A program made the position numbers and the translations under genes. A stretch of DNA of 64,000 nucleotides from Exiguobacterium acetylicum DSM 20416. GTDB lineage: Bacteria > Bacillota > Bacilli > Exiguobacteriales > Exiguobacteriaceae. Position 1 is the first letter of the stretch. Each line of letters begins with the position of its first letter. The stretch is taken from positions 2,284,501 to 2,348,500 of the forward strand of contig NZ_JNIR01000001.1 of NCBI RefSeq assembly GCF_000702605.1, read 5' to 3'. Below are positions 14,384 to 43,890 of the stretch, in pieces. The notes under the pieces are model-generated. The model ran no database searches, was not told the DNA's origin, and saw only the letters and a list, made by a program, of their open reading frames with translations.

Positions 14384-14385
14384 TG

Positions 14386-15834: not shown

Positions 15835-15859
15835 ATTTTTTTACCTTACCTTTTCTATT

Positions 15860-18237: not shown

Positions 18238-19379
18238 ACTTCTTCCCCCATTAGCTCTTTAAATCTATTAATTTGAAAATCAACAATTTTTTCTTCATTA
18301 TATTTTTCTATAGCAAGTTGAATCGAATTTTGCTGAAACCTTTGTAAGACTTGTAAATTTTCCGCTAAATAAATAATTTTTTTAGAAATTTCAGATGGAG
18401 ATTTTAATGGAACAATAAATCCATTAGAATTGTTAATAACTTGTTCTCTACAGCCCCTAATATCAGTAGCAATAATTGCATTCCCCATCGCCATAGCCTC
18501 TATAATTGATCGAGGCATGCCTTCTCTATATGAAGGCAAACAATAAATGTCACTTATAATTAACAAATCATTTATATCTTCTCGTCTACCAGTAAAAATG
18601 ATGTTTTTATTTTTTTTATATTTCTCAATTTTCTTCACTGTCTCTAAATCGCGTTCACCTGGAGCCAAGTCCCCTATTATCAATAATTTAATTTTGATAT
18701 TATTAATCATTTCAAACGCCTCTAATAAATCAATAATGCCTTTTTCTTCTACTAAGCGCCCAATAAAAGAAATTACAATCTCATTTTCGGATATTTGAAA
18801 CTGATGTTTAATCGATTTAATTTTTTTTGTTGAATATTTCTGTATATTAAATTTGTTTTCAAGGTCAATGCCATTACCTATGTAGTCAATTTTCTGCTTA
18901 GGAAGAAAATTCTTGAGAATAGCTAGCTCGGTATCTTCTTTTGATTGAACAAATAAATGCTTTGTAAAAAATTTAGCCATAATTTTTTCTATACTAAAGA
19001 AAAAATTATACTTTAACTTGCTCATTTCATCATGGAAATAAAATCCATGAGCTGTATAAATCACATTTTCAATTCCTACTAATTTACAAGCGATTCTTGT
19101 AATAACAGACGCTACTGGTGCGTGAGTATGAACAATATCAGGTTTTTCTTTTTTTAGTATCTTCATAATTTCAAAAATAGAAATAATGTTAGAAAGCCCG
19201 ATATTTCTTCCGATTTTTTTATTAATTAATCTTACTCCTGTATTTTCAATAACTTGTCCATGATTGTTAACTTCACATATTGCGACTACTTCAATGTTTT
19301 GCTGTATACATTCTTTATTTAAAGCTCCAAGCATATTGTGCATCATAGTATCTACAGATGTGATTTGTATGACTTTCAA
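18234..19379 (-). CDS. family 4 glycosyltransferase
   Basis: A complete 381-residue GT-B enzyme: N-terminal acceptor domain with [17 protein letters not shown] and YTAHGFYFH, then the donor domain with [20 protein letters not shown] and the E-x7-E motif at [17 protein letters not shown]. No signal peptide; it is likely peripheral on the inner face of the membrane. It overlaps both neighbours by 4 nt. It is a good candidate for the second sugar of the unit, after the initiating transferase and the reductase just upstream. Confidence 0.88.
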
Positions 19380-20254
19380 AATCTAGATCTCCTTAATATA
19401 GAATCTTTTATTGTTTTTTTAAATTCTACTAATTGGTAATTATCTCTATAAGTTGATAATGAATGATCATAAGCTAAATTTCCGAATAATTTTTCAATTA
19501 CATTTACTCTTTGACTTAATCTCAATATTAAAAAATTAAAAGCAGTAGTTAATATCATTTTTCTTTTATAAGTATTTGCGATTTCTTTCACTAAATTTGA
19601 TGTAGAGACGTATTCTTTGTTTTGTGGAAAGAACATTCCTTTATCTTCGTTCAAAATTATTAACTTCAAAAAGTTAGATAAGTTATCGATAAACAACATA
19701 CTTCTTTTATTCTCAATATAAGGAAATAAAAAAGTTAAAGGTACAGCTTTTTTTAGTAATTCAAAGTTTCCTTTTGATTCAGGTCCATAAATCATAGGTG
19801 GACGAATAATAGCAACATTAAAATCATTATTTTGTAATTTCTCAAGTAACTTTTCTGCTTGTAATTTACTGTCTCCGTAAAAATCATTAGGAATAGGTAG
19901 AGTATTTTTATTAATAATCCCATTTTCTAGACCTACACTTTTCTTACCGTAAACTATAATACTGCTCATAAAAATAAATTGCTTAACACCATCTTTTTTA
20001 GCCTTTTTCGCTACCTCAAGTGTGAGATCTCTATTGATTTTGTAGTACAGATCTTCTAGTTTAGGATTTCTAGACACATGTGCTATACCCGCAAGATGCA
20101 GTACCGCGTCATAATCACTGAAATTCTTAACTTTCCAACTTTCTTCTCTAATTGAAACGAACTCTAAGATTATTTTACTTTCGTTATCATCAATCCACTT
20201 TTTAAATTGTTTACCTATATAACCGTTCTCACCTGTGACAAGTACCTTTTTCAT
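19376..20254 (-). CDS. NAD-dependent epimerase/4-ketoreductase (WbpV/WbpK-like)
   Basis: An extended SDR of 292 residues: VLVTGENGYIGKQF, VLHLAGIAHVSRN, Ser in FIFMSSIIVYG, and Tyr-x3-Lys in FYGDSKLQAEKL. Proteins of this group placed next to an initiating sugar transferase and a FlaA1-type 4,6-dehydratase usually reduce the 4-keto sugar to make the first sugar donor (UDP-QuiNAc or UDP-FucNAc). That role is inferred from position; a C4 epimerase is the alternative. It lies 6 bp after the sugar transferase, where GC content drops sharply. Confidence 0.8.
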   Translation of the reverse strand: MKKVLVTGENGYIGKQFKKWIDDNESKIILEFVSIREESWKVKNFSDYDAVLHLAGIAHVSRNPKLEDLYYKINRDLTLEVAKKAKKDGVKQFIFMSSIIVYGKKSVGLENGIINKNTLPIPNDFYGDSKLQAEKLLEKLQNNDFNVAIIRPPMIYGPESKGNFELLKKAVPLTFLFPYIENKRSMLFIDNLSNFLKLIILNEDKGMFFPQNKEYVSTSNLVKEIANTYKRKMILTTAFNFLILRLSQRVNVIEKLFGNLAYDHSLSTYRDNYQLVEFKKTIKDSILRRSRF

Positions 20255-28389: not shown

Positions 28390-28559
28390 CTGCGTCCATT
28401 CCCTTCTGTGTTTTGCTTCTCGTTAGTATCGGTCATCCATGAAAAAACTTACAGTCCGAGTATAACGAAATTTGAGATCGATTTGTAAAAAACGGGAAAA
28501 GATGAAAAAAAGAGCCTATCGTTGAACTGAACCAAAAAAGTTAGACAATAAATAATTTG

Positions 28560-29456
28560 TCAGGCGACCTTGAGGACCTGAGTCCGGTATTCCACCGGGC
28601 TCAGGTTTTTTAGTCGTCTCTTGATACGACGATGGTTATAGTACTCGATGTAACGCTCAAGCTCATATTTGAAGTGATCCATGTCATCAAACTCCTTGAG
28701 ATACAGGAGCTCTGACTTGAGCACGGCGAAGAAGCTTTCGATGGCTGCGTTGTCGAGACAGTTGCCCTTACGGGACATACTTTGCGTAATGCCGTGCTCG
28801 TGGAGCGTACCAGTGAACGCTCTGTATTGATAATGCCACCCCTGATCGGAATGAAGGATTGGGCGCGCCTCTCCGTCGAGCTTCCCGATTGCCTGGTCCA
28901 ACATTTCGCCAACGAATCGATAGGTAGGTCGGTCCGATAGGGTATAGGCAATGATTTCACGGTTTCCCAAGTCCATCATCGGCGAGAGGTAGAGCTTCTC
29001 CCCGAACAGATGAAATTCAGTGACGTCAGTCACCTATTTCTGGTTCAGACCGGTGGCCTTGAAGTCACGTTGGAGAAGATTCGGTGCGACTTCTCCGACC
29101 CGTCCTTTATAGGAACGGTATCGCTTCATGCGGACGAGACACTTGAGACCGAGCTCGTTCATGAGACGGCGCACGGTCTTCGGATCGTGCCGGAAGCCTT
29201 GGCGTTCGAGAAGTGCGTGGATGCGACGATAGCCACATCGTCCCTCGTGTTCGTGGAAGAGGGTATGGATGGCCGACTTCACCTCCGCGTACTTGTCTTC
29301 GCCCGTCAGGCGCGTCCGCCAATAGTAGTAGACACTCCGAGCCATCTCGAGCACGCGGAGGAGTCCCGGGACGGGATAGACCGCCCGCAACTCATCGATT
29401 ACTTGCGCCTTGATCCGGTTCGTCGCGCATTCTCTTCTTGAACCAAGGCTCTCAAT
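28560..29456 (-). pseudogene. IS3 OrfB with an in-frame amber stop
   Basis: Reading starts from the frameshift point in the A7 run; a free-standing TTG start at 29390 is possible. The HTH_21-like part ([26 protein letters not shown]) is followed by an integrase core with Asp in VTDVTEFHL, Asp in [10 protein letters not shown] and Glu in [12 protein letters not shown]. The codon at 29036-29034 is TAG where a Trp (LNQ-K-W-V-T-D) is expected, immediately before the catalytic Asp. One G-to-A change explains it. As read, the transposase is inactive. Confidence 0.88.
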
Positions 29457-29908
29457 TTTTTTAGCGCAGCGTTCTCCATCTCGAGATACTCGACCCGCTC
29501 CTTGAGCTTCTCGACTTCTGTCATCTTTTCAAAATCTTTCTTCTTGTGTCTCGCCATCGGGGCACGTCCTTTCGGTCTAGTGACCAGACCTGCGGTCCCC
29601 TCCCGTTCATACGTCGATCGCCAGTTCGAGATCATCCCCGGGGAGGAAATTCGATATTTTACGGCTGCCTCTATGTAGGACAGTCCGTTGGTCGCCATGT
29701 CGTTTAATACCTCCAGTTTAAATGCCGGCGAGTGTGTTGTATAGGAAGGATCGAAGATCGTCTCTCCCCAACGTTCATAAAGACGCGACCACTCACGGAC
29801 TCGTTCAGGTCGTATCCCGAATTCCTCCGCCATAATCTGGTATCCGTCTCGTCCCGTCAGATAACGTTCAACAACCTTGATCTTAAATGCCTTCGTATAT
29901 TTGACCAT
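29399..29908 (-). CDS. IS3 OrfA
   Basis: The 169-residue product has two helix-turn-helix units ([23 protein letters not shown] and [20 protein letters not shown] regions) and a C-terminal coiled coil ([19 protein letters not shown]). The A7 run at 29462-29456 inside that coil lets a -1 slip enter orfB. Intact, in contrast to its orfB partner. Confidence 0.9.
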
Positions 29909-29987
29909 AAAAAATACCCCATAAAAGTTGGATTTTTATGTCCAACTTTTATGGGGCAGTTCACGTTCAGATAAGCTCTTTCGTTCA

Positions 29988-30673
29988 TTAGAGTGATGTT
30001 TGACTTTCTACCGTATATGTTTTCTTCTCATAGTCATAGTTCATAATGACGAGTTTACGTTGTGTTGTCGAAGTTGGGAACACGTATGTTTTCGAGAGTG
30101 CCTTGATTCCGAGTCCATAGTCTAGTTCTTGTTTCGTTTGAATCGATGTCCAGTCAATCGAGTCTACTCCTGTCCACTCGCCAAGACCTGAACCAGATAA
30201 TACTGCATCCAATTGTTTCTCCGTCATACCCGTCTTGATTTTCTTTCCTTTGAGCAGTTTCATCTTACTTTCACGAGCACCTGAGTAACTATCAACACGA
30301 AACAGATCTAGTGATTTTCCTGTCAAACGATAGACTGAACTATTTTTTTCGTCATGAACTGAAACACAGATATGTTCGTAAAGTTCTTTTCATCAGAGAA
30401 CGTGTATGCCGTTGTTTTTTGACCTTGTGATACGGTCGTGAATTCCGCCTTTTTCTTTAGTACCGTCGAACCACTTTTTTTCGTCAGTTGTTTCTTATAA
30501 TCTTTCCCATAGATGACTTTTGCTGCTTGCTCGATTGTCATCCCCGCTTTTAATGCGGTGTAACGATCGGTTACTTTCGTTTCGTCTTTCGTCGCAGCAG
30601 ATGCCGCTCCTCCGAATAAAGTCGTTCCTGCGAGTACTGTTGCTACTGTAACTTTCGTAAATGTCATTTTCAT
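29988..30673 (-). pseudogene. array member 6: secreted two-repeat G-M-T protein, frameshifted
   Basis: The last gene of the array. The first frame (30673-30323) has a signal peptide ending GGAASAA, the first motif (ALKAGMTIEQAAKVIYGKDY) and runs off frame after QFMTKK. The second frame (to 29988) carries the second motif (KIKTGMTEKQLDAVLSGSGLGEW). The paralogue at 30689 has ATG-ACG-AAA-AAG-AAC here; loss of the G, or of one A, in the A run at 30349-30343 gives the observed shift. It is otherwise undamaged and closest in sequence to member 5. Confidence 0.85.
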
Positions 30674-30688
30674 GTTCCTATCTCCTTT

Positions 30689-31378
30689 TTAGAATGTCTC
30701 GTGATTTTCAATAACGTAGGCTTTCTTTTTCGTGTCATAACTCATCTCAACGTAAACACGTGATTTCGTCGATTTTTGGAAGACATACAATTTTCCTTTA
30801 AACGCTTCAATCTCATAGTCTTTGATTTCTTTCGCACTGAAGACGCTTCGTGCATCTTCCTCAAGCAATCCAGCCCATTCCCCAAGACCAGACCCCGAGA
30901 GCACACCATCGAGTTGTTTCTCCGTCATTCCCGTCTTGATTTTAGCGCCCGCGTTTAACTTCCGTGTACTCTCTCGGTATTCGGAATATGTATTCCGTCC
31001 CATTTCGACTTGTTTCGAAATAAGACGATACACGGAATCGTTCTTTTTCGTCATGAAACCGAGCGACATCAAAGTCGGAGGAATCTTTGCATTCCGATCA
31101 TAGATTTCGTAATAAATTTCTTTACGCTTATCTTCAACGTCCTTAAACTCTTCTTTCGTCTTCAATACTTGTGAACCGCTTTTTGTCGTTAATTGTTTTT
31201 TGTAGTCTTTGCCGTATAAGACTTTTGCGACTTGCTCCACCGTCATACCCGCTTTGAGTGCTGTGTATTGATTCGTCGCTGTCGTCTCGACTTTCGTCGC
31301 TGCCGATGCCGTGCCACTAAGGAATGTTGATCCTGCGATGATTGTCGCCACTGTGATTCTCATGAATGTCGTGTTCAT
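30689..31378 (-). CDS. array member 5: secreted two-repeat G-M-T protein
   Basis: A 229-residue secreted protein (signal peptide to about SGTASAA). Mature part: first motif ALKAGMTVEQVAKVLYGKDYKKQL, the segment KSGSQVL, a middle region ending in FMTKKNDSVYRL, then the second motif KIKTGMTEKQLDGVLSGSGLGEW and a final beta-rich tail. The (L/I)-K-x-G-M-T helix motif followed by a glycine-bearing turn is what BLIP-like and SmpA/BamE-like domains show, so two such domains in tandem are inferred. No lipobox, no membrane anchor. Confidence 0.8.
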   Translation of the reverse strand: MNTTFMRITVATIIAGSTFLSGTASAATKVETTATNQYTALKAGMTVEQVAKVLYGKDYKKQLTTKSGSQVLKTKEEFKDVEDKRKEIYYEIYDRNAKIPPTLMSLGFMTKKNDSVYRLISKQVEMGRNTYSEYRESTRKLNAGAKIKTGMTEKQLDGVLSGSGLGEWAGLLEEDARSVFSAKEIKDYEIEAFKGKLYVFQKSTKSRVYVEMSYDTKKKAYVIENHETF

Positions 31379-31393
31379 ACTCTAATCTCCTTT

Positions 31394-32086
31394 TTAATAC
31401 TGACTATGATCTTCGACACGATACGTTTTCTTTTTCGTATCATAGATGAAAAAGATGTATTGCCATTTGTTTGTTGCAGTCGGAAAAACGTACGATTTTG
31501 TATGAATGATCGTCGCTTTCCCTGCTTTGACTTCTTTTTTTCGAAGGACGGATGTCGTATCGACGTGACCGAGTGTTCCGAATGCACCGAGCCCTTTCCC
31601 CGTTAGTAATCGATCGACTTGTTGTTCCGTCATCCCGTTCTTGATTTTCGCACCCTTGATCAGTTTGCGATCACTCGTCCGGAATCCGGCTGCGGTGTCA
31701 CGCTTGAACTCCATTTGTTTCATCGTCAGCCGATACTTCGTTCCGCCCGTCTCCGTCATGAACATCAGGACACCGATCGCTGACGGGAATTCCACTTTTC
31801 GATTCACAAGATCATAGAGAAGGACGTTCCGATCCCATTCCTCCATCTCAATTTCTGTGTTCAATCGTAAGACTTGTGAACCGTTTTTCATCTTCAGTTG
31901 TTTTTTATACGTCTTGCCATAGAGGACTTTGGCGACTTGTTCCACCGTCATCCCGGGCTTTAAAGCACGATATTGTTTTGTGGCGATTGTCTCAGCCTTC
32001 GTTGCCGTATCCGCCGTTACTGGATGTAAAGAAACTATTGCGACAAGTACCATGAGAAGCCATCGTTTTACGTTCCACTTATGCAT
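31394..32086 (-). CDS. array member 4: secreted two-repeat G-M-T protein
   Basis: A 230-residue paralogue. The signal peptide is MHKWNVKRWLLMVLVAIVSL onward, cleaved near ADTAT. Motifs: ALKPGMTVEQVAKVLYGKTYKKQL and KIKNGMTEQQVDRLLTGKGLGAFG. The start ATG shares one base with the stop of member 3 (TGATG), so translation is coupled. It differs from its neighbours mainly in the middle region and the tail, as expected for a diversified family. Confidence 0.8.
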   Translation of the reverse strand: MHKWNVKRWLLMVLVAIVSLHPVTADTATKAETIATKQYRALKPGMTVEQVAKVLYGKTYKKQLKMKNGSQVLRLNTEIEMEEWDRNVLLYDLVNRKVEFPSAIGVLMFMTETGGTKYRLTMKQMEFKRDTAAGFRTSDRKLIKGAKIKNGMTEQQVDRLLTGKGLGAFGTLGHVDTTSVLRKKEVKAGKATIIHTKSYVFPTATNKWQYIFFIYDTKKKTYRVEDHSQY

Positions 32087-32805
32087 CAGAATCCACCGTC
32101 TTCGTTTGCGCCGGAAACCGTCATGACATCCGCAACGACATAGCCTTTACCCGTATCATGCATCCTGACGCGCTTCTGCTTCTCCTTGTTATCCGTCTGG
32201 AAGATATAGATTTTCACTTTTGCATTTCCGAATCCAATGGTCTTCAACTCTCGTTTTGAGAAGACCGAGCGATAGTCCATCACAGCCCACGTCATCCAGT
32301 CGCCGAGCCCTTTCCCTGTCAGGACAGCATCTACTTGTTTCGTGGTCATGTCGAATCGAATCTGTTTCCCTGTCATGAGCTGTTTCGTACTTTGCCTTAC
32401 GGTCATCGGGTGATCTCGTTTCATGTCCACGCCTTTAAATACAAGGCGATAGAGCTTATCCTTCGGTTTTTTCATGAACATGATTTGCATGACATGCATC
32501 GGCTCTTGTTTCGTTTGATCATAGAAGAAATACTGGAGGCTATCGACAGATTCTTCTGAAATGACTTTCTTTACATCGTGTTTGAGAACAGTCGATCCAT
32601 TTTTCTTCGTTAAGTATTTTTGATACGACTTGCCGTACATCTGCTTAGCAAACTCTGTCACCGTCATCCCGAACGAATAGTTTTTCAAAGAATCGGTAAA
32701 TTGTTGTTCGTTTTTCGTTGCCGCCGAGACCGTTCCACTGCTAAGTAATACGATGACCATCAGACAGACGAAACTCGACTTGATCCACTTCTGCATCCCG
32801 TTCAC
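32086..32805 (-). CDS. array member 3: secreted two-repeat G-M-T protein
   Basis: A 239-residue paralogue with signal peptide (SSFVCLMVIVLLSSGTVSAA). Motifs: YSFGMTVTEFAKQMYGKSYQKYL, then QIRFDMTTKQVDAVLTGKGLGDW, in which the usual Gly of G-M-T is Asp. The linker holds KNGSTVL and FMKKPKDKLYRLVF. It is the most divergent member in the first repeat. It overlaps member 4 and lies about 21 bp after member 2. Confidence 0.78.
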   Translation of the reverse strand: MNGMQKWIKSSFVCLMVIVLLSSGTVSAATKNEQQFTDSLKNYSFGMTVTEFAKQMYGKSYQKYLTKKNGSTVLKHDVKKVISEESVDSLQYFFYDQTKQEPMHVMQIMFMKKPKDKLYRLVFKGVDMKRDHPMTVRQSTKQLMTGKQIRFDMTTKQVDAVLTGKGLGDWMTWAVMDYRSVFSKRELKTIGFGNAKVKIYIFQTDNKEKQKRVRMHDTGKGYVVADVMTVSGANEDGGF

Positions 32806-32826
32806 TCACTTTCTATTGCACGTGCT

Positions 32827-33525
32827 TTAGTTTTTTTCCTGAATCGTCCGAACATCACTGATCTGATAAGTTCTTTTTTGTTCGCTATACGTCAGTTCGA
32901 CATGTTTCCACTTGTTCGTCGTCGATTTAAAGACATATTCTTTGATCCGAGACACTTCAGCAAATCCTAGTTTTTGTTCGTCCAGCGTATAAGCAGACGC
33001 TGTATCCATATGACCGAGCATCGTCCAGTTACCAAGACCTTTCCCCGTCAATTTCGCATCCAGCTCTTTTTCCGTCATCCCGTTCTGGAGTACGGCACCT
33101 TTGACGAGCGTCCGTGTGCTTTCACGATATCCTGTCTTCGTCTTCCGTTCGATGAACAAGGCTTTCGTCACCAAGCGATACTTCGCACTCTTCTCTTTCG
33201 TCATGAATTGTAAGACCAGTTCAGTCGGGGGATGGGTTGTTGCCGAATCGGATAGGACGTGGATTAATTGCTTATGTTCTTCCTCATCCCCTTCGAAGTT
33301 GATTGGAAGTTTCAAGACAGTCGATCCGTTTCTTTTCTTCAGGTGTTTCTGATACGACTTGCCGTACAGGACTTGCGCGACTTGTTGCATCGTCATTCCA
33401 TTTTTCAAGCCCTTGTACTGTGTCGTCGCAAGCGTTTCTGCTTTTGTTGCTGCGGATACTGTTCCTGGAACAAACAGACCAAGCAACAGTACTAAACAGA
33501 GTGACCCTATCATGATACGTTTCAT
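32827..33525 (-). CDS. array member 2: secreted two-repeat G-M-T protein
   Basis: A 232-residue paralogue, signal peptide IGSLCLVLLLGLFVPGTVSAA. Motifs: GLKNGMTMQQVAQVLYGKSYQKHL with KRNGSTVL, and VLQNGMTEKELDAKLTGKGLGNW, separated by FMTKEKSAKYRLV. It begins after a short gap downstream of member 1 and belongs to the same likely transcript as the subtilase at 35830. Confidence 0.8.
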   Translation of the reverse strand: MKRIMIGSLCLVLLLGLFVPGTVSAATKAETLATTQYKGLKNGMTMQQVAQVLYGKSYQKHLKKRNGSTVLKLPINFEGDEEEHKQLIHVLSDSATTHPPTELVLQFMTKEKSAKYRLVTKALFIERKTKTGYRESTRTLVKGAVLQNGMTEKELDAKLTGKGLGNWTMLGHMDTASAYTLDEQKLGFAEVSRIKEYVFKSTTNKWKHVELTYSEQKRTYQISDVRTIQEKN

Positions 33526-33569
33526 ACCTGTTTCCTACTCTCCTCGATGACTCCATGAATCATCCTTAT

Positions 33570-34253
33570 TCATTTTTCGTATTTCAATGAAATCCCGATT
33601 TCTGTATCCACCTCATATCGCTTTTTCTGCGTGTTATAGGACAAGGCGACGACCTGCATCTTTTTCGTATGTGGTCGATGGAATTGATAGATTTTGTAGC
33701 GCCCCGTTTTCATCGGACTTTCTTTGATGACAGACGAAACGTTCCAACTAAAATACATTGACACCTGTCCGAGTTTTTTGCCTGTCACGAGTTGATCGAG
33801 TTGTTTCTCCGTCATCCCGTGGCGTAATGACGCCGGCTTCATGAGTGTCCGGCTATTTTCATACAACCCATTTTCCGTATCGGCTTGGTAGTACAGCGCT
33901 TTTTGTGTCAGATAATATGTCTTCTGGTGCTGTTTCGTACTAAATTCAAGAAGCGTTGTCGTTGGAAGGTTTTTGGAGGAGCGATCAAGTACATATCCGA
34001 GGGACCGATACCCTTGTTCGTTATCGGTCGTTCCCGGTTTTTTCGTAAAGATGACGCTTCCATTTTGCTTCTTGATGTATTTCCGGTACTCTTTTCCGTA
34101 TATTGTCTTCGCGACTTCCGTTAGCGTCATACCGAACTTGAGTGCTTTGTACTCTTTTTTGATCTGCAACGCTTCCTTTGATGCTGCTTGTCCTTCGAGT
34201 GTCCCGCTTATACAGAGAACACCAATGAGGAAGACACATAGGATACGTTTCAT
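33570..34253 (-). CDS. array member 1: secreted two-repeat G-M-T protein
   Basis: A 227-residue paralogue with signal peptide (LCVFLIGVLCISGTLEGQAAS). Motifs: ALKFGMTLTEVAKTIYGKEYRKYI with KQNGSVIF, and SLRHGMTEKQLDQLVTGKKLG. The first gene of the array, it starts 17 bp after the subtilase stop, so the protease and the array are very probably co-transcribed. That arrangement makes an inhibitor, chaperone or immunity role towards the protease worth considering; nothing in the sequence proves it. Confidence 0.8.
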   Translation of the reverse strand: MKRILCVFLIGVLCISGTLEGQAASKEALQIKKEYKALKFGMTLTEVAKTIYGKEYRKYIKKQNGSVIFTKKPGTTDNEQGYRSLGYVLDRSSKNLPTTTLLEFSTKQHQKTYYLTQKALYYQADTENGLYENSRTLMKPASLRHGMTEKQLDQLVTGKKLGQVSMYFSWNVSSVIKESPMKTGRYKIYQFHRPHTKKMQVVALSYNTQKKRYEVDTEIGISLKYEK

Positions 34254-34270
34254 CGTTCTACCTACTTTCC

Positions 34271-35830
34271 TTATTTCACGAGCTGAACGGCACGATCAGC
34301 ATTCAAGCGACCGTATCCGTACGTCGTGTCACGACCTTTTTTGCCGAGGTCCTTTGCTGACTTGCGGAGGATCGATTCGACGTCCGTCACTTTGATACTT
34401 GGCTTTAAGCTATAGAGGACACTCGCGACGCCAGCGACATGCGGTGTCGCCATCGATGTACCACTCCAAAAGATCGATTCGCCATCTTGCAGGTAACTCG
34501 CGATGTCTTGTCCCGGTGCAACGAGATCCAGTCCTTCGCCGTAGTTCGAGAACGACGCTCGTTTATCGAATCGGTTCGTCGCCCCGACCGAGAACGCATA
34601 TTTCGAACGTGCCGGATAGGACAGTTTCGATGCACCTTCATTGCCGGTTGCTGCTGCAACGAAGATCCCTTTCTTGCGCGCTTCCGCTAAGGCATCTTCA
34701 ATCGCCAGTGAGACACCGCCACCACCAAGGCTCAAGTTGATGACTTTTGCCTTTTGTTTCACAGCGAACAGAATGCCCTTGGCAATGTTCGAGTTCGACG
34801 CATAGTTATTGCGCGAGATGACTTTAATCGGAATGATGCTTGCTCGGTCGTTGATCCCCGTCATCCCATACCCATTGTTTGATGTTGCGGCGATGACACC
34901 GGCGACATGTGTCCCATGTCCGTGATCGTCGTAAGCGAGTTGACGTTTATGGACAAAATCGTAGCCGAGATCCATTCGGACGCGTCCAGCGAAATCCGCA
35001 TAGGTCGGATTGATCCCCGTATCGACGACCGCCACGCGAACGGTCGAACGTGATTTGTTGGCAATTCGTTTGACCATCGCGTGATAACCGATGTCCGCTC
35101 CTTTAACGCCTCCGCGTTGTCCCGTGTTTTTTAATGCCCACTGAACCGATTGGAACGGATCAGTGCTGAGTAACTTCATCGGTTGATCGAGTTCGACGTA
35201 ACGCACGCCCTTCGTTTTTTCGAGTTGGCGTTTGGCTGCCATCGCTTGGATGAAGCTGTTGTAGGAGAACTTTTCAATACGTAACGTACTGTCAATCGTT
35301 TCGTGATCAGTGGCGCGTGACGTCTGTGACAACGTACTCGCTTTCGTCGCCCCGTTCAGACGGACGACGAGACTCGTCGCTTGTCCGGTTGTCGTTGATT
35401 TTGTCGCGTATTCCCGAATTGGTTCAAGGCGTTCGAGTTTATAGGGAATCGTAAATGCTTTGTTCTTCGCCCCCGTCACTTCGATGTATTGTCGCCCACT
35501 CCACGTCAGTGGGAAAAAGAGTGTTTTTTTACTATTCGCATACCGCGCATATGGATCTTTTTGTTTGTATTCCGTCTGCGACGTGTAAACGGTCGCTTTC
35601 TTTGAAGCATCAAAGGCGAACTTCAAGTGTGTTCCACCTGACAGATACGTCTTCGTATCAAAATAGAATAAGGCTTTCCCGCTCGCATCGAACGTTCCTT
35701 TGATGTAGCCTTTTTTCGTTTTGGCTTCGATGGCTGGGACTTTTTTCGCCGTTGTCGCAGCTTCTGTCGTATCCCATGTATATGTACCAAATGCACTCAC
35801 GAAGAGAGCACTGACGATGACCTTTTTCAT
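34271..35830 (-). CDS. secreted subtilisin-like serine protease (S8), copy 2
   Basis: The start at 35830 has AAGGAG upstream; a longer reading from 35866 puts residues before a proper signal peptide. The 519-residue protein has a signal peptide, a pre-domain of about 200 residues with a beta-rich region and an I9-like propeptide part, and the S8 catalytic domain: Asp in VAVVDTGINPTYADF, His in DDHGHGTHVAG, Asn region in AATGNEGASKL and Ser in SGTSMATPHVAG. It is a close paralogue of the gene at 35968 and heads the G-M-T array. Confidence 0.92.
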   Translation of the reverse strand: MKKVIVSALFVSAFGTYTWDTTEAATTAKKVPAIEAKTKKGYIKGTFDASGKALFYFDTKTYLSGGTHLKFAFDASKKATVYTSQTEYKQKDPYARYANSKKTLFFPLTWSGRQYIEVTGAKNKAFTIPYKLERLEPIREYATKSTTTGQATSLVVRLNGATKASTLSQTSRATDHETIDSTLRIEKFSYNSFIQAMAAKRQLEKTKGVRYVELDQPMKLLSTDPFQSVQWALKNTGQRGGVKGADIGYHAMVKRIANKSRSTVRVAVVDTGINPTYADFAGRVRMDLGYDFVHKRQLAYDDHGHGTHVAGVIAATSNNGYGMTGINDRASIIPIKVISRNNYASNSNIAKGILFAVKQKAKVINLSLGGGGVSLAIEDALAEARKKGIFVAAATGNEGASKLSYPARSKYAFSVGATNRFDKRASFSNYGEGLDLVAPGQDIASYLQDGESIFWSGTSMATPHVAGVASVLYSLKPSIKVTDVESILRKSAKDLGKKGRDTTYGYGRLNADRAVQLVK

Positions 35831-35932
35831 TTGGGTTTCACTCCTTATCGTTGTATCCTTTTTCATTATAATGGAAAAAATTGATTTTCCTAGTTCTTTT
35901 TACCTCTATCAATCAATGAATTGTCTGAAAAA

Positions 35933-35960
35933 AAGAAGCCCTGTTCGCACAGGACTTCTT
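35933..35960 (-). terminator. terminator between the two subtilases
   Basis: AAGAAGCCCTGT pairs with ACAGGACTTCTT around TCGC, followed on the minus strand by a T run. It ends the upstream subtilase transcript, so the second subtilase plus array has its own promoter. Confidence 0.8.
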
Positions 35961-35967
35961 GACTGCA

Positions 35968-37545
35968 TTAAGGGATTAGTTTGACGGCGTTATCAGCGTT
36001 CAAACGACCGGCACCATAGCTCGTATCATAGCCTTTTTTCCCGAGATCCTTCGCTGATTTCTTGAGGATGCTTTCCACACTACTTGCCTTCAAGGAAGGC
36101 TTCAGACTGATCATAAGACTCGCGACACCCGCGACGTGTGGCGTCGCCATCGAAGTACCACTTCCATATAACAGCTCCCCATCTGCGAGATAACTTGGGA
36201 TCGAGACGCCTGGAGCAACGAGGTCTAGACCTGTTCCATAATTCGAGAACGACGCTTTCGTATCTTTTCGTCCGGTTGCACCGACCGACAAGACATATTT
36301 CGAACGGGCCGGATACGCGACCGTTCCGCGTCCTTCATTTCCGGAAGCGGCGACGATCAGGATGTTCTTCTTGACTGCCGCTGCTAATGCCGACTCGATC
36401 GATTTCGAAGAAGAACTACCGCCGAGACTCATGTTGATGACTCGGGCACCTTGTTTCGTTGCATGCTGGATGCCTTTGACGAGTCCCGACACCGAACCAG
36501 CCCCTGACTCATCGAGCACCTTGATTGGAATCAACGTCGTCATCGGATTGATACCGGTCATCCCGTACGTATTATTTCCACCTGCTGCAATGATCCCGGC
36601 GACGTGTGAACCGTGTCCGTTATCATCCCACGCCGTCTTATCGCCATTGATGAAATCATAGCCAAGATCCATCCGGACTTTACCGGCGAAGTCGGCATAC
36701 GTCGGATTAATGCCGGAGTCAAGGACTGCGACTTTCGTTGCAGACAGCTTCTTGCCTTTGATGCGTTTTTGCATGGCGACAAAGCCGATGTCTGCTCCCT
36801 TCAGTCCCTTTTTTTGTCCCGTGTTCTGTAGCGACCATTGATGTTTTTGATAGGCGTCGACACCGAATGCTTGGATCGGTGCGTCAAACTCTGCGAACGC
36901 AACGCTGTTCGATTGCTCGAACTTTTTCTTCGCTGCTTCAGCTTCAACATAGGAATTATAGACGAGTCGTTCGATGCGGAGCTCAGACGCTAACGATTCG
37001 ATTTTTGAGGCACCGAACGATTGTGCCCGCATTGCACCAGGGCGTGTCTGCACAAGTAACGCCGGTTTGACTGCTTTGACAGCAGCTGTCATCGATTCCT
37101 CGATTGGTTCGTAACGTGAGATGTAGGCAGGAACAGAATAACGGTCGCCCGGATAGCCTTCGAGGACTAAGTATTGTCGTCCGCTCCAACTGAGTGGGAA
37201 GTAGAGCGTATCATCCGTGACTTGGTAATACCGATTGTAGACGCGACCTGCTTCCGCGTCGGCTTTACTGGCGAACATCGTTCCGTACGTATTGTAGTCG
37301 AGCTCGAACTCAAAATGCGTTCCTTTTGCGACGAAATCCTTCGCATCAAAATACCAGACCGCAAATCCATCCGAATCAAAGCGACCTGTTAAAGCACTAC
37401 CGGCTTGCTTTGAGAACGCCGGGACTTCCTTTGCCTTCATTAGTTTTGCCGGACGAATCGTTTCCTGCTTTTCAAACGCATTGACTGGTACTGTACTACA
37501 GATCAAACCAAGCGCTAAGCTCCCTGCTATCCATGTTCGCATCAT
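35968..37545 (-). CDS. secreted subtilisin-like serine protease (S8), copy 1
   Basis: GGGAGGAACA precedes ATG-ATG. The 525-residue protein has a signal peptide (WIAGSLALGLICSTVPVNA), the same pre-domain as its paralogue (YFDAKDFVAKGTHFEFELD, LYFPLSWSGRQYLVLEG) and an S8 domain with Asp in VAVLDSGINPTYADF, His in DNGHGSHVAG, AASGNEGRG and Ser in SGTSMATPHVAG. It is monocistronic, with a terminator right after the stop. The tandem copies imply a gene duplication followed by association of one copy with the array. Confidence 0.93.
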   Translation of the reverse strand: MMRTWIAGSLALGLICSTVPVNAFEKQETIRPAKLMKAKEVPAFSKQAGSALTGRFDSDGFAVWYFDAKDFVAKGTHFEFELDYNTYGTMFASKADAEAGRVYNRYYQVTDDTLYFPLSWSGRQYLVLEGYPGDRYSVPAYISRYEPIEESMTAAVKAVKPALLVQTRPGAMRAQSFGASKIESLASELRIERLVYNSYVEAEAAKKKFEQSNSVAFAEFDAPIQAFGVDAYQKHQWSLQNTGQKKGLKGADIGFVAMQKRIKGKKLSATKVAVLDSGINPTYADFAGKVRMDLGYDFINGDKTAWDDNGHGSHVAGIIAAGGNNTYGMTGINPMTTLIPIKVLDESGAGSVSGLVKGIQHATKQGARVINMSLGGSSSSKSIESALAAAVKKNILIVAASGNEGRGTVAYPARSKYVLSVGATGRKDTKASFSNYGTGLDLVAPGVSIPSYLADGELLYGSGTSMATPHVAGVASLMISLKPSLKASSVESILKKSAKDLGKKGYDTSYGAGRLNADNAVKLIP

Positions 37546-37665: not shown

Positions 37666-40344
37666 TTACTTGACTGTGACTGTGAACGTTTTGACGACTT
37701 TGTAGTTTCCTACTGTCGTGTATGTGACACGGATCGTCGTTTTGCCTGCTTTGATCCCTTTCACGTTACCACGTGACGAGACTTGCGCGACTTTTTTGTT
37801 CGCTGACGCATACTGAACAGATTTGATCTTATCCGTTGCTGACGTATACGCGATACGTGTCGTCTGGTTCTTCTTGAGTGTTGCTTTTGTTGCTTTCAGC
37901 GTGACGCTGTTCGCTTTTGTTTCGATCGGTAAAACTGTTTTCAAGACAAAACCGTCTTTTAACGTAACTGTTGCTTCAACCGTCGTCTTACCTGTTGCTT
38001 TACCTGTCAGACGACCTTTTGAATCAACTGTCGCTTTTTTCGTATCAAGGACACGGTAGCGTGTTGACGCAACTGCTGATGTCGTGTTCGTAACTGTCGT
38101 TTTCAAGTCGAGTGCTTTTCCTTGGTAGACAGCACCTGCTTTGATTGCTGCAACTGGCGCTTTTGTTGCTTGTGGAACGAAGACGCCGACGTAACCGTTG
38201 ACTTCTGCTGTTTTGATACCTTTGACTGGAACCGTCAAGATACCGTTCTTATCTGTGACGAGTTTCGTGTTCGTAACGCCACTAGCATCAACGAAGACTT
38301 GGTTCGCGTGTGTTTTACCCATGTTGACTTGAACCGTCGTATCAAGCGCTGCGTTTTTCCCGATGACTGTCGCGACACCTGTGTTGCGGTCTTTTCCGAA
38401 ACGGACGCTTGAGATCAAGTCTTTACCCGCTTCTTTTGACGTGTTCGATGTGTGGTACGCAACGTGTTGTTTACCATACGCATACTGTTTACGGACTTTT
38501 AGGAGATTCGTGATTTCATCATAGTACGGTGTCGTTTTCGACATGTACGATGCATCCGTCTGGTAGAGATCACCGTAGTAGACCGTTGGCACCGTGTTTT
38601 TGTTCGAAAGAAGGAACGCGTATTGCGCGACGACGTTTTCCGTCGAGTATTTCTTCGTTGGACTTGCGAGTTCTTTGTTGTAGATCGCAAGTGCCTTCGC
38701 TTCATCTTCTTTATTGTAGAGCTTCTCGAACGATTTCGGCTCGCCGTCTTTTCCGTACTGCGTATTCGTTTTGATGCCGTACGCATCAAGCATGATTTGG
38801 TTGACGCGGTTTTTCTCTTGGTCATGGTTGTTGACGAATGACCAGTTCGCTTGAACGTTTGTCGCGCCGTCACCTTCACGGTTAACGACTGAGACTTTCG
38901 CTAAGTCACGGAGTGCACGTTTGTTCGATGGTGTGAGTGCTGAACGGAGCGTGAAGTAAAGCTCTCCGTCCATGACGAGTTGCTCGTTATTGTTTGCTTT
39001 CATGTAAGCATTCTGTTCTGTTTTATAGCTCTCGATATAGCTGAGGTAATCTTGTTTCCCGAAGTGTGCTTTTGAAATTTCCGCTTCTGCTTTGAGGATC
39101 GCCGTATCGTAGTGCGACGCAGCATCAATCCGGAAACCGTCGAACTTGTACGTTTCAAGCATCCACTTCATCCAGTTCTTTTGTTCCTTGATGACTTCTG
39201 GGTTCGAGTTCGCAAGGTCGACACCGATCAAGAACTCATCGTTGTTCGTCATCGTTTTGTTGTATGCCTGTGTTGGGAAACCAGTCTCATCAACGAAGAG
39301 GAACTGATCTTCGATATCGATTCCTGAGTTATCGTTTTGGTATGAACGTTCTTCTGACCCATAACCGTACGCAGCTTGTGTCTTCATGTATTCTTCCGTC
39401 AACGAAGCGATCTTGGTGTTTTCCGTTGAAGTAAGCAAAGCTTCTTTTGTTTCGAAGCCGTTTTGTTTCATGTACTCGAGGTATCCTTCATCCTTCGCAT
39501 ATTGCGAAAGCATCGGCTTCCAGTTCTCTGGTGAGACTTCATACCAACCGTCTGCTGCGAGGTACGTATCGACGACATTCAAGTTCTGTGTCTTCGCTGC
39601 GTCAAGCAACCATTCTGGTAAGTAGTTGTTCGCATCGTCTTTACCGAAGTAACGGTACGGTTTACCGTCTTTGTCCGTCATGACGCGCCCCATACCCTGC
39701 CCTTGCAGTGATGTTCCATTGATGAATGATTTGTTCCACTCTTTGAGGTAACCGTACTTCTCTTGTCCCATACCGCCACCTTTTGTGTAAGCGAGGTAAG
39801 GCGTTGCGAGGGTCTTCGTTTTTTCTCCACCTGTGAATGGGTTCATGAACGGCTCACCTGAACTTGTCGCACGACGAACGAAGACAGCTTCACGTTTGTT
39901 GAGACCGAGCATTTGGTTTGGAACGAGGTCCATCTGGACTTTGATGTTGTCGTCATGCAACATGTCGACCATCATCTCGAGTTGTGTGGCTTTTCCGTAT
40001 TTCGTCGCAACCGATCCACCTGGTCCTTGTGGGAATTCACCAAGGTCATAACGGTCAGCGATTGCATATCCTTCCATGTAACGTGCCATATCGAATGAAC
40101 GATATGCAGGTGGTAACCACACATCTGTCACACCCCACGAATTGAGCAACTCACCTTTTTTAGCAAGCGTCCGGTACATGTTGCTTTCGTATGGTTGATA
40201 CAGGCTGAAGCTTTGGAAAATAACGCGGTTATCGAGTTTTTCACTTGGTGCGAAAGCCTTTGCGCTTTCTGGTGCATACGTCAGTCCGCTTGTCGCTACC
40301 AATGCCGCAAGCAAACCTGTTGAGACTTTTTTCGCCTTGTTCAT
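37666..40344 (-). CDS. gtfC: secreted 4,6-alpha-glucanotransferase, GtfC type (GH70)
   Basis: An 892-residue enzyme with a signal peptide to about residue 30, then an unpermuted GH13-like (beta/alpha)8 barrel. Conserved motifs in order: MDLVPNQ (about 138-144), FDGFRIDAASHYD (401-413, nucleophile D407), VMDGELYF (457-464, acid/base E461) and FVNNHDQEKN (503-511, transition-state D508). DLVPNQ and the last motif are of the GH70 kind; the unpermuted order is that of GtfC enzymes known from Exiguobacterium. These cut alpha-1,4 links of starch-like glucans and rebuild alpha-1,6 links. From about residue 725 two Ig-like Big_2 domains follow. An amylase is the alternative but fits the motifs less well. 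Confidence 0.88.
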   Translation of the reverse strand: MNKAKKVSTGLLAALVATSGLTYAPESAKAFAPSEKLDNRVIFQSFSLYQPYESNMYRTLAKKGELLNSWGVTDVWLPPAYRSFDMARYMEGYAIADRYDLGEFPQGPGGSVATKYGKATQLEMMVDMLHDDNIKVQMDLVPNQMLGLNKREAVFVRRATSSGEPFMNPFTGGEKTKTLATPYLAYTKGGGMGQEKYGYLKEWNKSFINGTSLQGQGMGRVMTDKDGKPYRYFGKDDANNYLPEWLLDAAKTQNLNVVDTYLAADGWYEVSPENWKPMLSQYAKDEGYLEYMKQNGFETKEALLTSTENTKIASLTEEYMKTQAAYGYGSEERSYQNDNSGIDIEDQFLFVDETGFPTQAYNKTMTNNDEFLIGVDLANSNPEVIKEQKNWMKWMLETYKFDGFRIDAASHYDTAILKAEAEISKAHFGKQDYLSYIESYKTEQNAYMKANNNEQLVMDGELYFTLRSALTPSNKRALRDLAKVSVVNREGDGATNVQANWSFVNNHDQEKNRVNQIMLDAYGIKTNTQYGKDGEPKSFEKLYNKEDEAKALAIYNKELASPTKKYSTENVVAQYAFLLSNKNTVPTVYYGDLYQTDASYMSKTTPYYDEITNLLKVRKQYAYGKQHVAYHTSNTSKEAGKDLISSVRFGKDRNTGVATVIGKNAALDTTVQVNMGKTHANQVFVDASGVTNTKLVTDKNGILTVPVKGIKTAEVNGYVGVFVPQATKAPVAAIKAGAVYQGKALDLKTTVTNTTSAVASTRYRVLDTKKATVDSKGRLTGKATGKTTVEATVTLKDGFVLKTVLPIETKANSVTLKATKATLKKNQTTRIAYTSATDKIKSVQYASANKKVAQVSSRGNVKGIKAGKTTIRVTYTTVGNYKVVKTFTVTVK

Positions 40345-40551: not shown

Positions 40552-43500
40552 TTATAGTCCGAGAAGAACTGCCTTCTCGTAACCACCAGTCAAGACAGAG
40601 TTGTCATACGACTGAAGCTCTTTGTTGACCGTGATGACGTTCGACAATGTTTTGAGTGTTCCTTCTGGAACTTTGATCTTAACGATGTCGAGACCGTTCG
40701 TGATATCATCATCCGAATCAGCCAGCGAGATGCTTGTGCCGACTGGGAGATTTTTTCCGTTCAACGTGTACTGTGCAGTGTTCGTTGCATCGTACATACC
40801 AGTGTATTGTACACCTTCCGTGAACTTGATACGAATCACGTCTTTTTCATCTTTTGCGTTAGCTGTGACTTTAGCGATTTCGAATGGCGAAGCCACTGGT
40901 GTGACTGGCGTTTTCGAAACTTTGAAGTCGTGTGTCGCTGTAGCGACCGTGTTACCGACATCGTCAGAGAGTGACTTGACGACGACTTTCCAATCTTCTC
41001 CGTAACCGTCTTTGTCGACGAGGTACTGGAGGTTCTCGTTCGCAGCGACGCGGAAGTTCATATCTGAGCTATCCGTGTAACCAACGACTGATCCATCGAT
41101 CGTAACGGTTTTACCGTTCTTATCTTTACCGATGAACTCAACTGTTGTTTTCGGCGGAAGTACTGTACCTTCTGCGTTGATGAGTGGCGTATCCGACTGA
41201 TCAAGACCACGAAGTTTAACCGGTTCACTCATCATGACTGTGAAGTCATTCGTCAAGAGATAACGGTCAATCGTCGTGATTTCCGCACTCTTCAGATCTG
41301 GAGAGTTAAGCGGTGAACCAGCATAGTTGAGGTCAAGCGATAACGCATCGTTTTTCTCGCCGTTCGCTTCTGCTTTGACAGAATCTTTTGCGAGCGAAAG
41401 TTTGAACTTATCGTTGTAGTAGTTCTCTTTCGTGTTGACTGTATCGTAGATTTCCGTCCAGTCCTTATTGAGCTCGAGGAGAACTTCGCCTGTCTCTTCA
41501 TCGTAGTACGTGACATCAGCATACTGGCTGAAGTCTTCGTACAACTTCGTGCTTGAGTTGTAACGCTCAAGTTTCAACTTCTTCGAAGCAAGCAATGCTT
41601 TGACTGCATCGAGGTCGAGACCTTTGAGCTGTTTGCTGAACATGATACGGAATTGTTCTGGCGACTCAACAACGACGCCTGCAGTTGGTTTGACTGTATC
41701 AGCAGCAACTGTGAAGTCGAGGTTTTGTGTCGTTCCGATGTTCGACTCATCCGAAAGGGCTGCGAAGTCCATCGCGTTCCAAATCTGGAGTGAGTGTTTA
41801 CCAGGTGCGAAGTAGCCTTCTTTTGCTCCTGGATACGCTTCTTCTGGAGCAACACCCATCATTTTCGCGTCGTTCAACGTGATGATGACTGTATCACGGC
41901 GATCGACGCCTGTTTTGTTATCAAACCCGAGGTATTCGAATTTGAAGTACTTCTCGCCGTATTGACCATCGATTTTGAACTTCGCGCCTGCGATTGCTTC
42001 TGAGAATTTCACTTCAAGTTGGTTCAGACCGACTGGTTTGACCGAAGTGACTTCCGGTTGACGTGCATCCGTCAACTTGAAGCTTGCTTTTGACTTCACT
42101 TCTGTATCCGTGTTGCTTGTGATTTTCGCAAGCACTTTAACAGTGGCGTTGTCTTGGAGTGGTGTTTCTTTATCAAGGATCAATTCGAATGCTTTTGGAT
42201 TCGAAGGAATCGATTTGATACCGATGACACGTTTCATACCATCGAACTGCTCGATTTGAATATTGTCGTTCGCAAGATACTCGCTCTCGTCAACAGTCGG
42301 TAATTTCTTATCGAGACCGAACGATTTCAAGAGAAGATCACGTGAGACGGCTTTATCGAGGAAGATCGTCACACGATCCGCTTGGTTCGATTCCGCTGCA
42401 AGCACGTTGATCAATTCAACTGGTGCTGGTGTCACCATGACCGTGCTGAACTTGACTTTCGCTTGACCATCGATTTTACCGATTAACTCTTTATATTCGT
42501 TGTCTGCTGTCTCGATGATTTGTGCGTCGATTGTTGCTTCGATGTCTGTGTTGCTGAATTCAGATGTCAAAAGAACAGTTGCTTTACCGTCTTGGATCGT
42601 GACACGTTCTTTCGCAAGTGAACCGAATGATGTCGATAATTTCAGGACGATATCGTCTGCTTTCGTATCAACTTCACCTGTCGCTTTGTTTTTCAACTGG
42701 AATGTGACTTCCGTGTTGTCTGATCCGTTTGCAAGGATCGAAGACGCTTTTGGTGTCACTTCAAGCATCCAGATGTTTTCAATGCTTTGTGTCATGAAGC
42801 TGAGTGAACCGAGGTCTTTCGCAACGCCACCGATCAAGATGCCTTTCGCGTCAACTGAATAGTCTTTGCCGTACTCGAGCCCTTCGACTTCAAGAACTGC
42901 TGACTTCTTGTCTGCGCTGAGTGTCGCTGACTTGACTGTCGCACCTGCGATTTTGAAGTTGTCTGCCATGACAGAATCAACTGCACGCGAGAATGAGACT
43001 TCGACTTTCTCTTTGCCGATTGCTTTCGCTGAAGCGAGGACCGTGTTTGCGATCGTGAAGTCCATCGGAGCTGATTTGACATCGCCGACTTTGACGACGT
43101 AGCTGTGTGTTCCTTCCGGAATGCCACCTTGCGATGCCATGAACTTCCCTTTCGAGAGCGTTCCTTTTGCAACGATTGGCGTTGCTGACATGTCTTTGCC
43201 TGGGTAGATCAAGAGTTCTGCCATTGCGCCCACTGCTGGGTACATGACATCTGCTTTGACTGAAAGCATCTGATCATCGACGCTTCCCATGACGTTCGAG
43301 ATGTTTGCTGCCTTGACTTCGTAGTTGATGTAACCTGTTACGACAGAGTTAGCACCTTTGTACGAGTAAGCCAGTTTATATTTACCTGCTTTTGAAGTCG
43401 ATGGTGTTTTGAGGTTGAACTTGCTGATTGGACGCTTAACGATGATACCTGATTTGTACTGGATGCTGATCGTGCTTGGCAATTGAACTTTTCCGCCAAC

Positions 43501-43890
43501 AGCAACCGGCTCGAGGACTGGTTCGAGGACATCAACTGGGTAGTTTTGAAGTTCGACTTTAAGAACAGCTTTCTTTGTCGTACCCGCTACCTTACCGTAA
43601 AGGACTTGGTATTTGTTGATGTATTTCTTTTCGAATTTGACAGAACCGCTCCATTTGACTGAGCGCATTTCGTACTTGCCGTTTGAAAGTTTGACTTTCA
43701 CTTTCGTCGGAAGCGTCAATTTCTTGACTGCATATTTCGAACCACCAGCATGTTTCATCAAGATTGGAGAGATGTATTTAACCGAGACCTTCGTTGCTGC
43801 ATCAGCAGCAACCGGTGCTACGACAGACGCCGTGACTGCAAGCGCAGCTGCAGCAGCGTACAATTTGTTCGTTTTCTTCGAATAACCCAT
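40552..43890 (-). CDS. S-layer-like secreted protein with Ig-like repeats, 1112 aa
   Basis: The signal peptide is MGYSKKTNKLYAAAAALAVT to about ADAA. The mature protein is beta-rich, Lys-rich near the N-terminus and almost Cys-free, with repeated Ig-like units of the SbsA/Big type (for example VEVSFSRAVDSVMADNFKIAG and IRIKFTEGVQYTGMYDATNT). A Big_1-like unit lies near VTPKASSILANGSDNTEVTF. No SLH domain and no LPxTG motif is present, so wall binding must use the basic N-terminal region or another mode. Size, composition, long leader and strong terminator suit an abundant S-layer protein. That identity is inference. Confidence 0.7.
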   Translation of the reverse strand: MGYSKKTNKLYAAAAALAVTASVVAPVAADAATKVSVKYISPILMKHAGGSKYAVKKLTLPTKVKVKLSNGKYEMRSVKWSGSVKFEKKYINKYQVLYGKVAGTTKKAVLKVELQNYPVDVLEPVLEPVAVGGKVQLPSTISIQYKSGIIVKRPISKFNLKTPSTSKAGKYKLAYSYKGANSVVTGYINYEVKAANISNVMGSVDDQMLSVKADVMYPAVGAMAELLIYPGKDMSATPIVAKGTLSKGKFMASQGGIPEGTHSYVVKVGDVKSAPMDFTIANTVLASAKAIGKEKVEVSFSRAVDSVMADNFKIAGATVKSATLSADKKSAVLEVEGLEYGKDYSVDAKGILIGGVAKDLGSLSFMTQSIENIWMLEVTPKASSILANGSDNTEVTFQLKNKATGEVDTKADDIVLKLSTSFGSLAKERVTIQDGKATVLLTSEFSNTDIEATIDAQIIETADNEYKELIGKIDGQAKVKFSTVMVTPAPVELINVLAAESNQADRVTIFLDKAVSRDLLLKSFGLDKKLPTVDESEYLANDNIQIEQFDGMKRVIGIKSIPSNPKAFELILDKETPLQDNATVKVLAKITSNTDTEVKSKASFKLTDARQPEVTSVKPVGLNQLEVKFSEAIAGAKFKIDGQYGEKYFKFEYLGFDNKTGVDRRDTVIITLNDAKMMGVAPEEAYPGAKEGYFAPGKHSLQIWNAMDFAALSDESNIGTTQNLDFTVAADTVKPTAGVVVESPEQFRIMFSKQLKGLDLDAVKALLASKKLKLERYNSSTKLYEDFSQYADVTYYDEETGEVLLELNKDWTEIYDTVNTKENYYNDKFKLSLAKDSVKAEANGEKNDALSLDLNYAGSPLNSPDLKSAEITTIDRYLLTNDFTVMMSEPVKLRGLDQSDTPLINAEGTVLPPKTTVEFIGKDKNGKTVTIDGSVVGYTDSSDMNFRVAANENLQYLVDKDGYGEDWKVVVKSLSDDVGNTVATATHDFKVSKTPVTPVASPFEIAKVTANAKDEKDVIRIKFTEGVQYTGMYDATNTAQYTLNGKNLPVGTSISLADSDDDITNGLDIVKIKVPEGTLKTLSNVITVNKELQSYDNSVLTGGYEKAVLLGL

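What the first reader, a model, noticed from the sequence alone, without database searches (positions are those of the whole stretch)
29988..35830. Six tandem secreted paralogues with paired G-M-T motifs behind a subtilase
Seen: six related signal-peptide proteins in a row, each with two copies of an (L/I)-K-x-G-M-T motif, starting 17 bp after a subtilisin-like protease and ending at one terminator. Known: BLIP-like and SmpA/BamE-like domains carry such motifs, and BLIP proteins inhibit secreted enzymes. Inference: a diversified family of protease inhibitors, chaperones or immunity proteins, or a defence or competition system acting outside the cell.
Basis: partly seen in the sequence, partly recalled or inferred. 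Interest (0 to 1): 0.8.

Follow-up and report, generated by a model that had tools for sequence, protein, structure and literature searches.

The report
BLIP-fold protein array behind protease
The bacterium Exiguobacterium carries a row of related secreted proteins, predicted to be shaped like a known enzyme inhibitor, directly behind a protease gene; they may be a set of protease-binding proteins, but what they bind has not been tested here.

Summary
On the minus strand, 17 bp behind a subtilase (SubA), lie six homologous genes with signal-like N-termini. Five are intact; the sixth is frameshifted.

At sequence level the family was found in one genus only, Exiguobacterium: 17 of 398 Bacilli genomes searched (not counting a 24-residue hit), 0 of 19 in the sister genus. 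SubA occurs in 14 of 19 genomes of the genus, with one to six members directly behind it in 14 of 14. All 12 tandem arrays are behind SubA. Three further genomes have a lone member without SubA, and deeper solo relatives have no subtilase beside them.

Best reading: a lineage-specific set of secreted BLIP-fold binding proteins, probably modulating SubA-type proteases. Fold and linkage are supported; the target is inferred.

The parts
34271..35830 (-). SubA: secreted subtilase (519 aa from the ATG at 35830), catalytic triad motifs intact
   Evidence: Peptidase_S8 E 6.3e-55; triad motifs kept in 14 of 14 orthologues; catalytic part residues 258-515
35831..35932 (-). SubA promoter region, between SubB's terminator and SubA; TATAAT or TATACT box in 12 of 12 upstream regions printed
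   Evidence: read by eye
35933..35960 (-). Terminator-like hairpin between SubB and SubA (makes SubA plus array a separate unit)
   Evidence: 12-pair stem and T tract
33570..34253 (-). p1: two-domain BLIP-fold paralogue, 227 aa
32827..33525 (-). p2 paralogue, 232 aa
32086..32805 (-). p3 paralogue, 239 aa; orthologues only in the E. sibiricum clade (up to 45% identity), none in the five near relatives
31394..32086 (-). p4 paralogue, 230 aa; the only member of 32 with a Pfam BamE hit (E 1e-4, under the cut-off)
30689..31378 (-). p5 paralogue, 229 aa
29988..30673 (-). p6: sixth paralogue, frameshifted (ORFs 30673-30323 and 30326-29988)
   Evidence: whole orthologues in G001 and G016
28523..29963 (-). 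IS3-family insertion in the loop of the array's own terminator; ACG duplication at 29964-29966 and 28520-28522
   Evidence: transposase domains
35968..37545 (-). SubB: neighbouring paralogous subtilase; followed by SubA, not by array genes, in the 13 genomes where both were mapped

Best explanation
The locus is a transcription unit (inferred from gene order, spacing, terminator and promoter) of one secreted subtilase, SubA, followed by a lineage-specific array of secreted proteins with the tandem two-domain BLIP fold. Shown here: homology of the six genes, internal domain duplication, predicted fold, linkage of the arrays to SubA, set turnover between strains, purifying selection. Inferred: the proteins act outside the cell as protein-binding modules that use the open sheet face, as BLIP does. 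SubA and related exoproteases are the likeliest partners, held in check (or steered) by a co-produced set of binders, in the manner of bacterial protease-inhibitor operons. Paralogues differ most on one sheet face, so they probably bind different enzymes or different forms of one enzyme.
Confidence: 0.4

Rival explanations
1. The array proteins are basic wall- or matrix-bound surface proteins that SubA trims, releases or matures; the BLIP fold is only a scaffold for binding wall polymers or each other.
For: Members are lysine-rich, pI 9.2-10.0, without a lipobox. The locus lies between capsule-type genes (LytR-CpsA-Psr, Wzz, a ParA/tyrosine-kinase-like ATPase) and secreted Ig-domain and GH70-like proteins. 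Lone members of three genomes stand beside Ig-repeat proteins.
Against: No known wall-binding domain was found. The variable sheet face fits partner-specific binding better than a uniform polymer. Best fold matches are protein-binding inhibitors.
Confidence: 0.25
2. They are secreted folding helpers (chaperone-like, as BamE or OmlA support assembly) for SubA or for other exoenzymes of this locus.
Against: BamE works in an outer-membrane complex that a Gram-positive organism lacks (established knowledge). Five or six divergent copies for one conserved SubA are hard to explain. The related subtilase SubB has none directly behind it.
Confidence: 0.13
3. They are immunity or defence proteins against secreted enzymes or toxins of competitors, with strain-specific sets.
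Against: No polymorphic toxin in the unit; orthologues under purifying selection, and mosaic dS also in the neighbouring wzz gene; no match of p5 in the phage and plasmid collections searched.
Confidence: 0.12
4. They act on penicillin-binding proteins or DD-carboxypeptidases, as suggested for BLIP in cell morphology, and the protease is only a neighbour.
For: BLIP fold. All 19 genomes have hits of the beta-lactamase2 family that read as DD-carboxypeptidases, and no evident class A beta-lactamase. PMC2954215 reports a proposed PBP role of BLIP (passages).
Against: The strict linkage to SubA is unexplained. The same hits are also in the two genomes without the family, G005 and G007.
Confidence: 0.07

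Closest known systems
BLIP, BLIP-I and BLP of Streptomyces (two-domain BLIP fold)
   Same: Secreted, two tandem helix-loop-helix plus beta-sheet domains; BLIP-I/BLIP are the top fold matches of p5 and among the top of p1 (description from PMC6121496, passages)
   Different: No Pfam BLIP match in any of 32 members at E<=0.01; 11-21% identity in the structural alignments; tandem arrays behind a subtilase; no class A beta-lactamase evident
S. mutans putative BLIP-like protein 3d4e (DUF3862 is my recalled label for it)
   Different: The DUF3862 model finds none of the 32 members at E<=0.01; not in the p5 list of 50; I know of no established function
BamE/SmpA_OmlA and OsmE lipoproteins
   Same: Share the GMT helix motif and the single-domain fold
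   Different: Lipoproteins of Gram-negative outer membranes, single domain (recalled; PMC2954215 passages); ours have two domains and no lipobox cysteine
SpeB-Spi, staphopain-staphostatin, Bacteroides C10 protease-Bti operons (PMC3462683, passages)
   Same: Protease gene linked within a few bp to co-transcribed inhibitor gene(s); Bti proteins predicted to be exported
   Different: Cysteine proteases and inhibitors not described as BLIP-like; one or two inhibitor genes rather than an array of up to six

Membership tests
BLIP-like superfamily (fold) | Tandem repeat of helix-loop-helix plus antiparallel-sheet domains | tested here: met
   AF2 secondary structure and best structural matches for p5 and p1; repeat shown by hhalign. 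Predicted models only
BLIP (Pfam PF07467) | Match to the family model | tested here: not met
   0 of 32 members at E<=0.01
BLIP (Pfam PF07467) | Inhibits class A beta-lactamase | not testable with these tools
   No class A beta-lactamase evident in 19 genomes; only 35-55 bit hits in 411-485 aa frames, read as DD-carboxypeptidases
BamE (PF04355) | Score over the curated cut-off | tested here: not met
   1 of 32 members matches, 22.5 bits against 23.2; 0 of 14 own-genus genomes listed
BamE (PF04355) | Lipoprotein (lipobox cysteine) | tested here: not met
   No cysteine in the mature part of p1-p5; 1 of 50 intact members has any
DUF3862 (PF12978) | Match to the family model | tested here: not met
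   0 of 32 members at E<=0.01; 0 of 14 own-genus genomes listed; profile-profile 90.5% over 25 columns only
Protease-inhibitor operon | Candidate gene(s) directly behind the protease gene | tested here: met
   14 of 14 SubA genes, gap -4 to 22 bp
Protease-inhibitor operon | Inhibition of the linked protease | not testable with these tools
   Needs a protein assay
Protease-inhibitor operon | Co-transcription | tested here: inconclusive
   Terminators flank the unit and none was found between its genes on this strand; promoter-like sites in the region are at chance level, 11 against 12.4; no RNA data
Polymorphic toxin-immunity locus | Toxin gene with a strain-variable C-terminal domain ahead of the immunity genes | tested here: not met
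   SubA is 95-99% identical in 7 pairs of the window's clade and ends with its catalytic domain

The most novel reading that the evidence does not exclude
The arrays are strain-specific repertoires of secreted BLIP-fold inhibitors of subtilases: a protease-directed use of the BLIP fold, with specificity set by exchanging whole paralogues and by change on one sheet face, serving self-protection and competition between strains whose exoproteases meet.
Probability: 0.25. Interest if true: 0.68.

Novelty: new variant of a known kind. Interest (0 to 1): 0.5.

Why it matters
BLIP is a model for protein-protein recognition, but apart from BLIP the functions of its superfamily were described as unresolved (PMC2954215, passages). 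Here the fold is predicted for a family found in one genus, in arrays tied to one protease, with natural sets of paralogues that keep the scaffold and differ most on one sheet face. If the protease is the target, this gives a natural panel for specificity of the fold, a new kind of subtilase inhibitor, and an easily tested role for a superfamily proposed to be inhibitory.

Tried and rejected
Pfam and NCBIfam on p1-p6, SubA and SubB: for the paralogues only sub-threshold hits, BamE and OsmE the sensible ones. PDB sequence search with A3: three chance-looking hits (ribosomal protein S8 twice, Lpg0364), no BLIP. Foldseek against PDB and viral models alone: no hit at E<=0.001. Phage and plasmid tblastn with p5: none.

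Arms-race idea: rejected as a general statement by dN/dS 0.01-0.22 in 34 of 35 chosen orthologue pairs (one saturated). My first face test assigned faces by hydrophobicity. It gave a smaller contrast (2.15 against 1.71 bits), and of the 30 most variable sites 7 fell on each face. The later test picks the more variable face by entropy and is partly circular; only its permutation test (p 0.0027) is free of that. Each half of the protein alone scores lower against the DUF3862-type set (51% and 19%) than the whole (90.5%); that set had 15 rows, two of them one protein, and some under the family's cut-off.

Phase variation of p6: its break is at a run of seven A's, but the broken G010 copy is not at such a run; dropped. 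Beta-lactamase as target: no class A enzyme evident. PMC3482391 on polymorphic toxins: no mention of SmpA, BLIP or BamE in the held text. No paper on this family appeared in the listings of searches; that is not proof that none exists.

Rows dropped: four fragments (two halves of p6, two halves of a broken G010 member) before the tree and the motif census. Solo members of G006, G008, G010, G011, G012 and G016 and the broken copies of G000, G003 and G015 were not in the tree. Orthologous groups were drawn by eye from the tree. The hit in G007 is 24 residues only and was not counted as a member. The subtilases of G005 and G006 fall clearly in neither the SubA nor the SubB clade (support 60); those of G009 and G017 were not in that tree (about 50% identity to SubA).

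Full report
WHAT IS THERE. The window is part of a 3.28-Mb genome (G000, contig C1:2284501-2348500). The eight named loci that carry the family are all Exiguobacterium: E. sibiricum 255-15, E. antarcticum, E. undae, E. indicum and four strains not named to species. On the minus strand the order is SubB (37545-35968), a terminator-like hairpin (35960-35933), SubA (from the ATG at 35830 to 34271), then six homologous genes p1-p6 down to 29988. p1-p5 are intact (227-239 aa). p6 is split by a frameshift at a run of seven A's; whole orthologues exist in G001 and G016 (94-96% identity to the two pieces). An IS3-family element (28523-29963) with a 3-bp ACG duplication lies in the loop of the array's own terminator, which is whole in the relative L055.

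THE FAMILY. p1 shares 31-39% identity with p2-p5. Each protein has two repeats of one domain (hhalign probability 82%, E 1.1e-5). The exact (L/I)KxGMT motif is at 8 of 12 sites in the window and 57 of 100 sites in 50 intact members. Pfam sees only BamE, in p4, under its cut-off, and in 1 of 32 members overall. Mature parts have no cysteine in p1-p5 and are basic (pI 9.2-10.0 in 50 members). Secretion is inferred from the N-termini by eye.

DISTRIBUTION AND LINKAGE. In the genus, 17 of 19 genomes have the family. In a draw of 398 Bacilli genomes 18 match, all of the genus, one of them by 24 residues only; in the sister genus 0 of 19. The SubA clade (62-99% identity to SubA; branch support 99) is in 14 of 19 genomes. 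In 14 of 14 it is followed by one to six members at -4 to 22 bp. All 12 arrays of two or more are behind SubA; G015 and G018 have one member there. SubB lies ahead of SubA and has no member directly behind it in the 13 genomes where both were mapped. G006, G009 and G017 have no SubA and one lone member, 24-36 kb from a SubA/SubB-like protease. G005 has one such protease and no member; G007 has neither. In the sister genus only a different, larger subtilase type was found by the SubA query. Deep solo relatives elsewhere in the genus have no SubA/SubB-like gene in the 12 loci mapped. The genomes are related, so these counts are not independent events.

EVOLUTION. A tree of 59 members shows about nine orthologous groups (drawn by eye) with conserved order: the last gene belongs to one of two groups in each of the 13 SubA genomes whose last gene is in the tree. 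The set differs between strains. p3's orthologues (up to 45% identity) are in the E. sibiricum clade and not in the window's five near relatives. Single members are replaced by divergent alleles: dS 1.07 against 0.25 for SubA (window and G001), 1.52 against 0.21 (G013 and G014), 1.59 against 0.57 (G002 and G010). The neighbouring wzz gene is similarly mosaic (1.13 against 0.29, window and G016), so this is not special to the array. Orthologue dN/dS is 0.01-0.22 in 34 of 35 chosen pairs (one saturated), and 0.02-0.09 for SubA in 12 pairs. These are constrained, presumably working genes, under less constraint than SubA and without general positive selection. Along six strands, variability alternates by face (permutation p 0.0027). 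Pooled dN/dS is 0.31 on the variable face, 0.13 on the other and 0.14 elsewhere, from 12 chosen pairs. The variable face was picked by its variability, and a first test with faces assigned by hydrophobicity was weak. In BLIP the two domains form a concave surface that docks on the enzyme (PMC6121496, passages).

HOW IT MAY WORK. The BLIP/PepSY/SmpA superfamily was proposed to be inhibitory (PMC2954215, passages with the abstract). Bacterial proteases are known in operons with small inhibitors, some predicted to be exported (PMC3462683, passages). The fold, likely secretion, strict linkage and variable face make secreted binders of SubA-type proteases the likeliest reading (0.4). Against it stand the lone and solo members, equal charge signs of both partners (SubA catalytic part pI 9.9), and the absence of any binding data. 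Rivals are wall or matrix proteins (0.25), secreted folding helpers (0.13), immunity or defence proteins (0.12) and PBP binders (0.07). No class A beta-lactamase is evident in the 19 genomes.

VERDICT. The array is real, with one gene broken and the terminator misassigned. The BLIP-fold guess is supported by two predicted models, and the inhibitor role is plausible but untested. It is a new lineage-specific variant of a known superfamily in an unusual arrangement.

Noticed in passing
window 28523-29963: IS3-family element; its second transposase frame is interrupted by an in-frame stop (29390-29034 and 29033-28560 are in one frame), so it may be inactive.
   Followed up: partly
G000:C1:980770-982820 (within L060) and solo loci L061-L071: Deep solo relatives of the family (three subfamilies) at other places, without a SubA/SubB-like gene in the loci mapped; the copy in the window's own genome is broken, and so are those in G003 and G015.
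   Followed up: partly
window 37666-40344: Secreted GH70-like glucanotransferase with Ig-like domains next to SubB; its relatives lie at this place in 10 of the 14 SubA loci.
   Followed up: no
window 40552-43890; L046:9351-16102: Large Big_4 protein near the array shares an N-terminal region (29-38% identity) with the Ig-repeat proteins beside the lone family members of G006, G009 and G017.
   Followed up: partly
L044 and L045, SubB region: SubB is split into two overlapping frames in G003 (E. antarcticum) and G004 (E. sibiricum), while SubA is whole.
   Followed up: no
window 10001-20000: G+C content falls to 24-33% against 40-52% elsewhere in the window; looks like acquired DNA.
   Followed up: no
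L046:3314-3874: A 186-aa protein near the lone member has weak similarity to this family (E about 1e-5) and, weaker, to DUF4309: a possible distant relative.
   Followed up: no
window about 35867-35890: Palindrome-like GGAAAATCAATTTTTTCC directly before the TATAAT box of SubA, kept exactly in 3 of the 5 near relatives and with one change in 2; possible operator.
   Followed up: no
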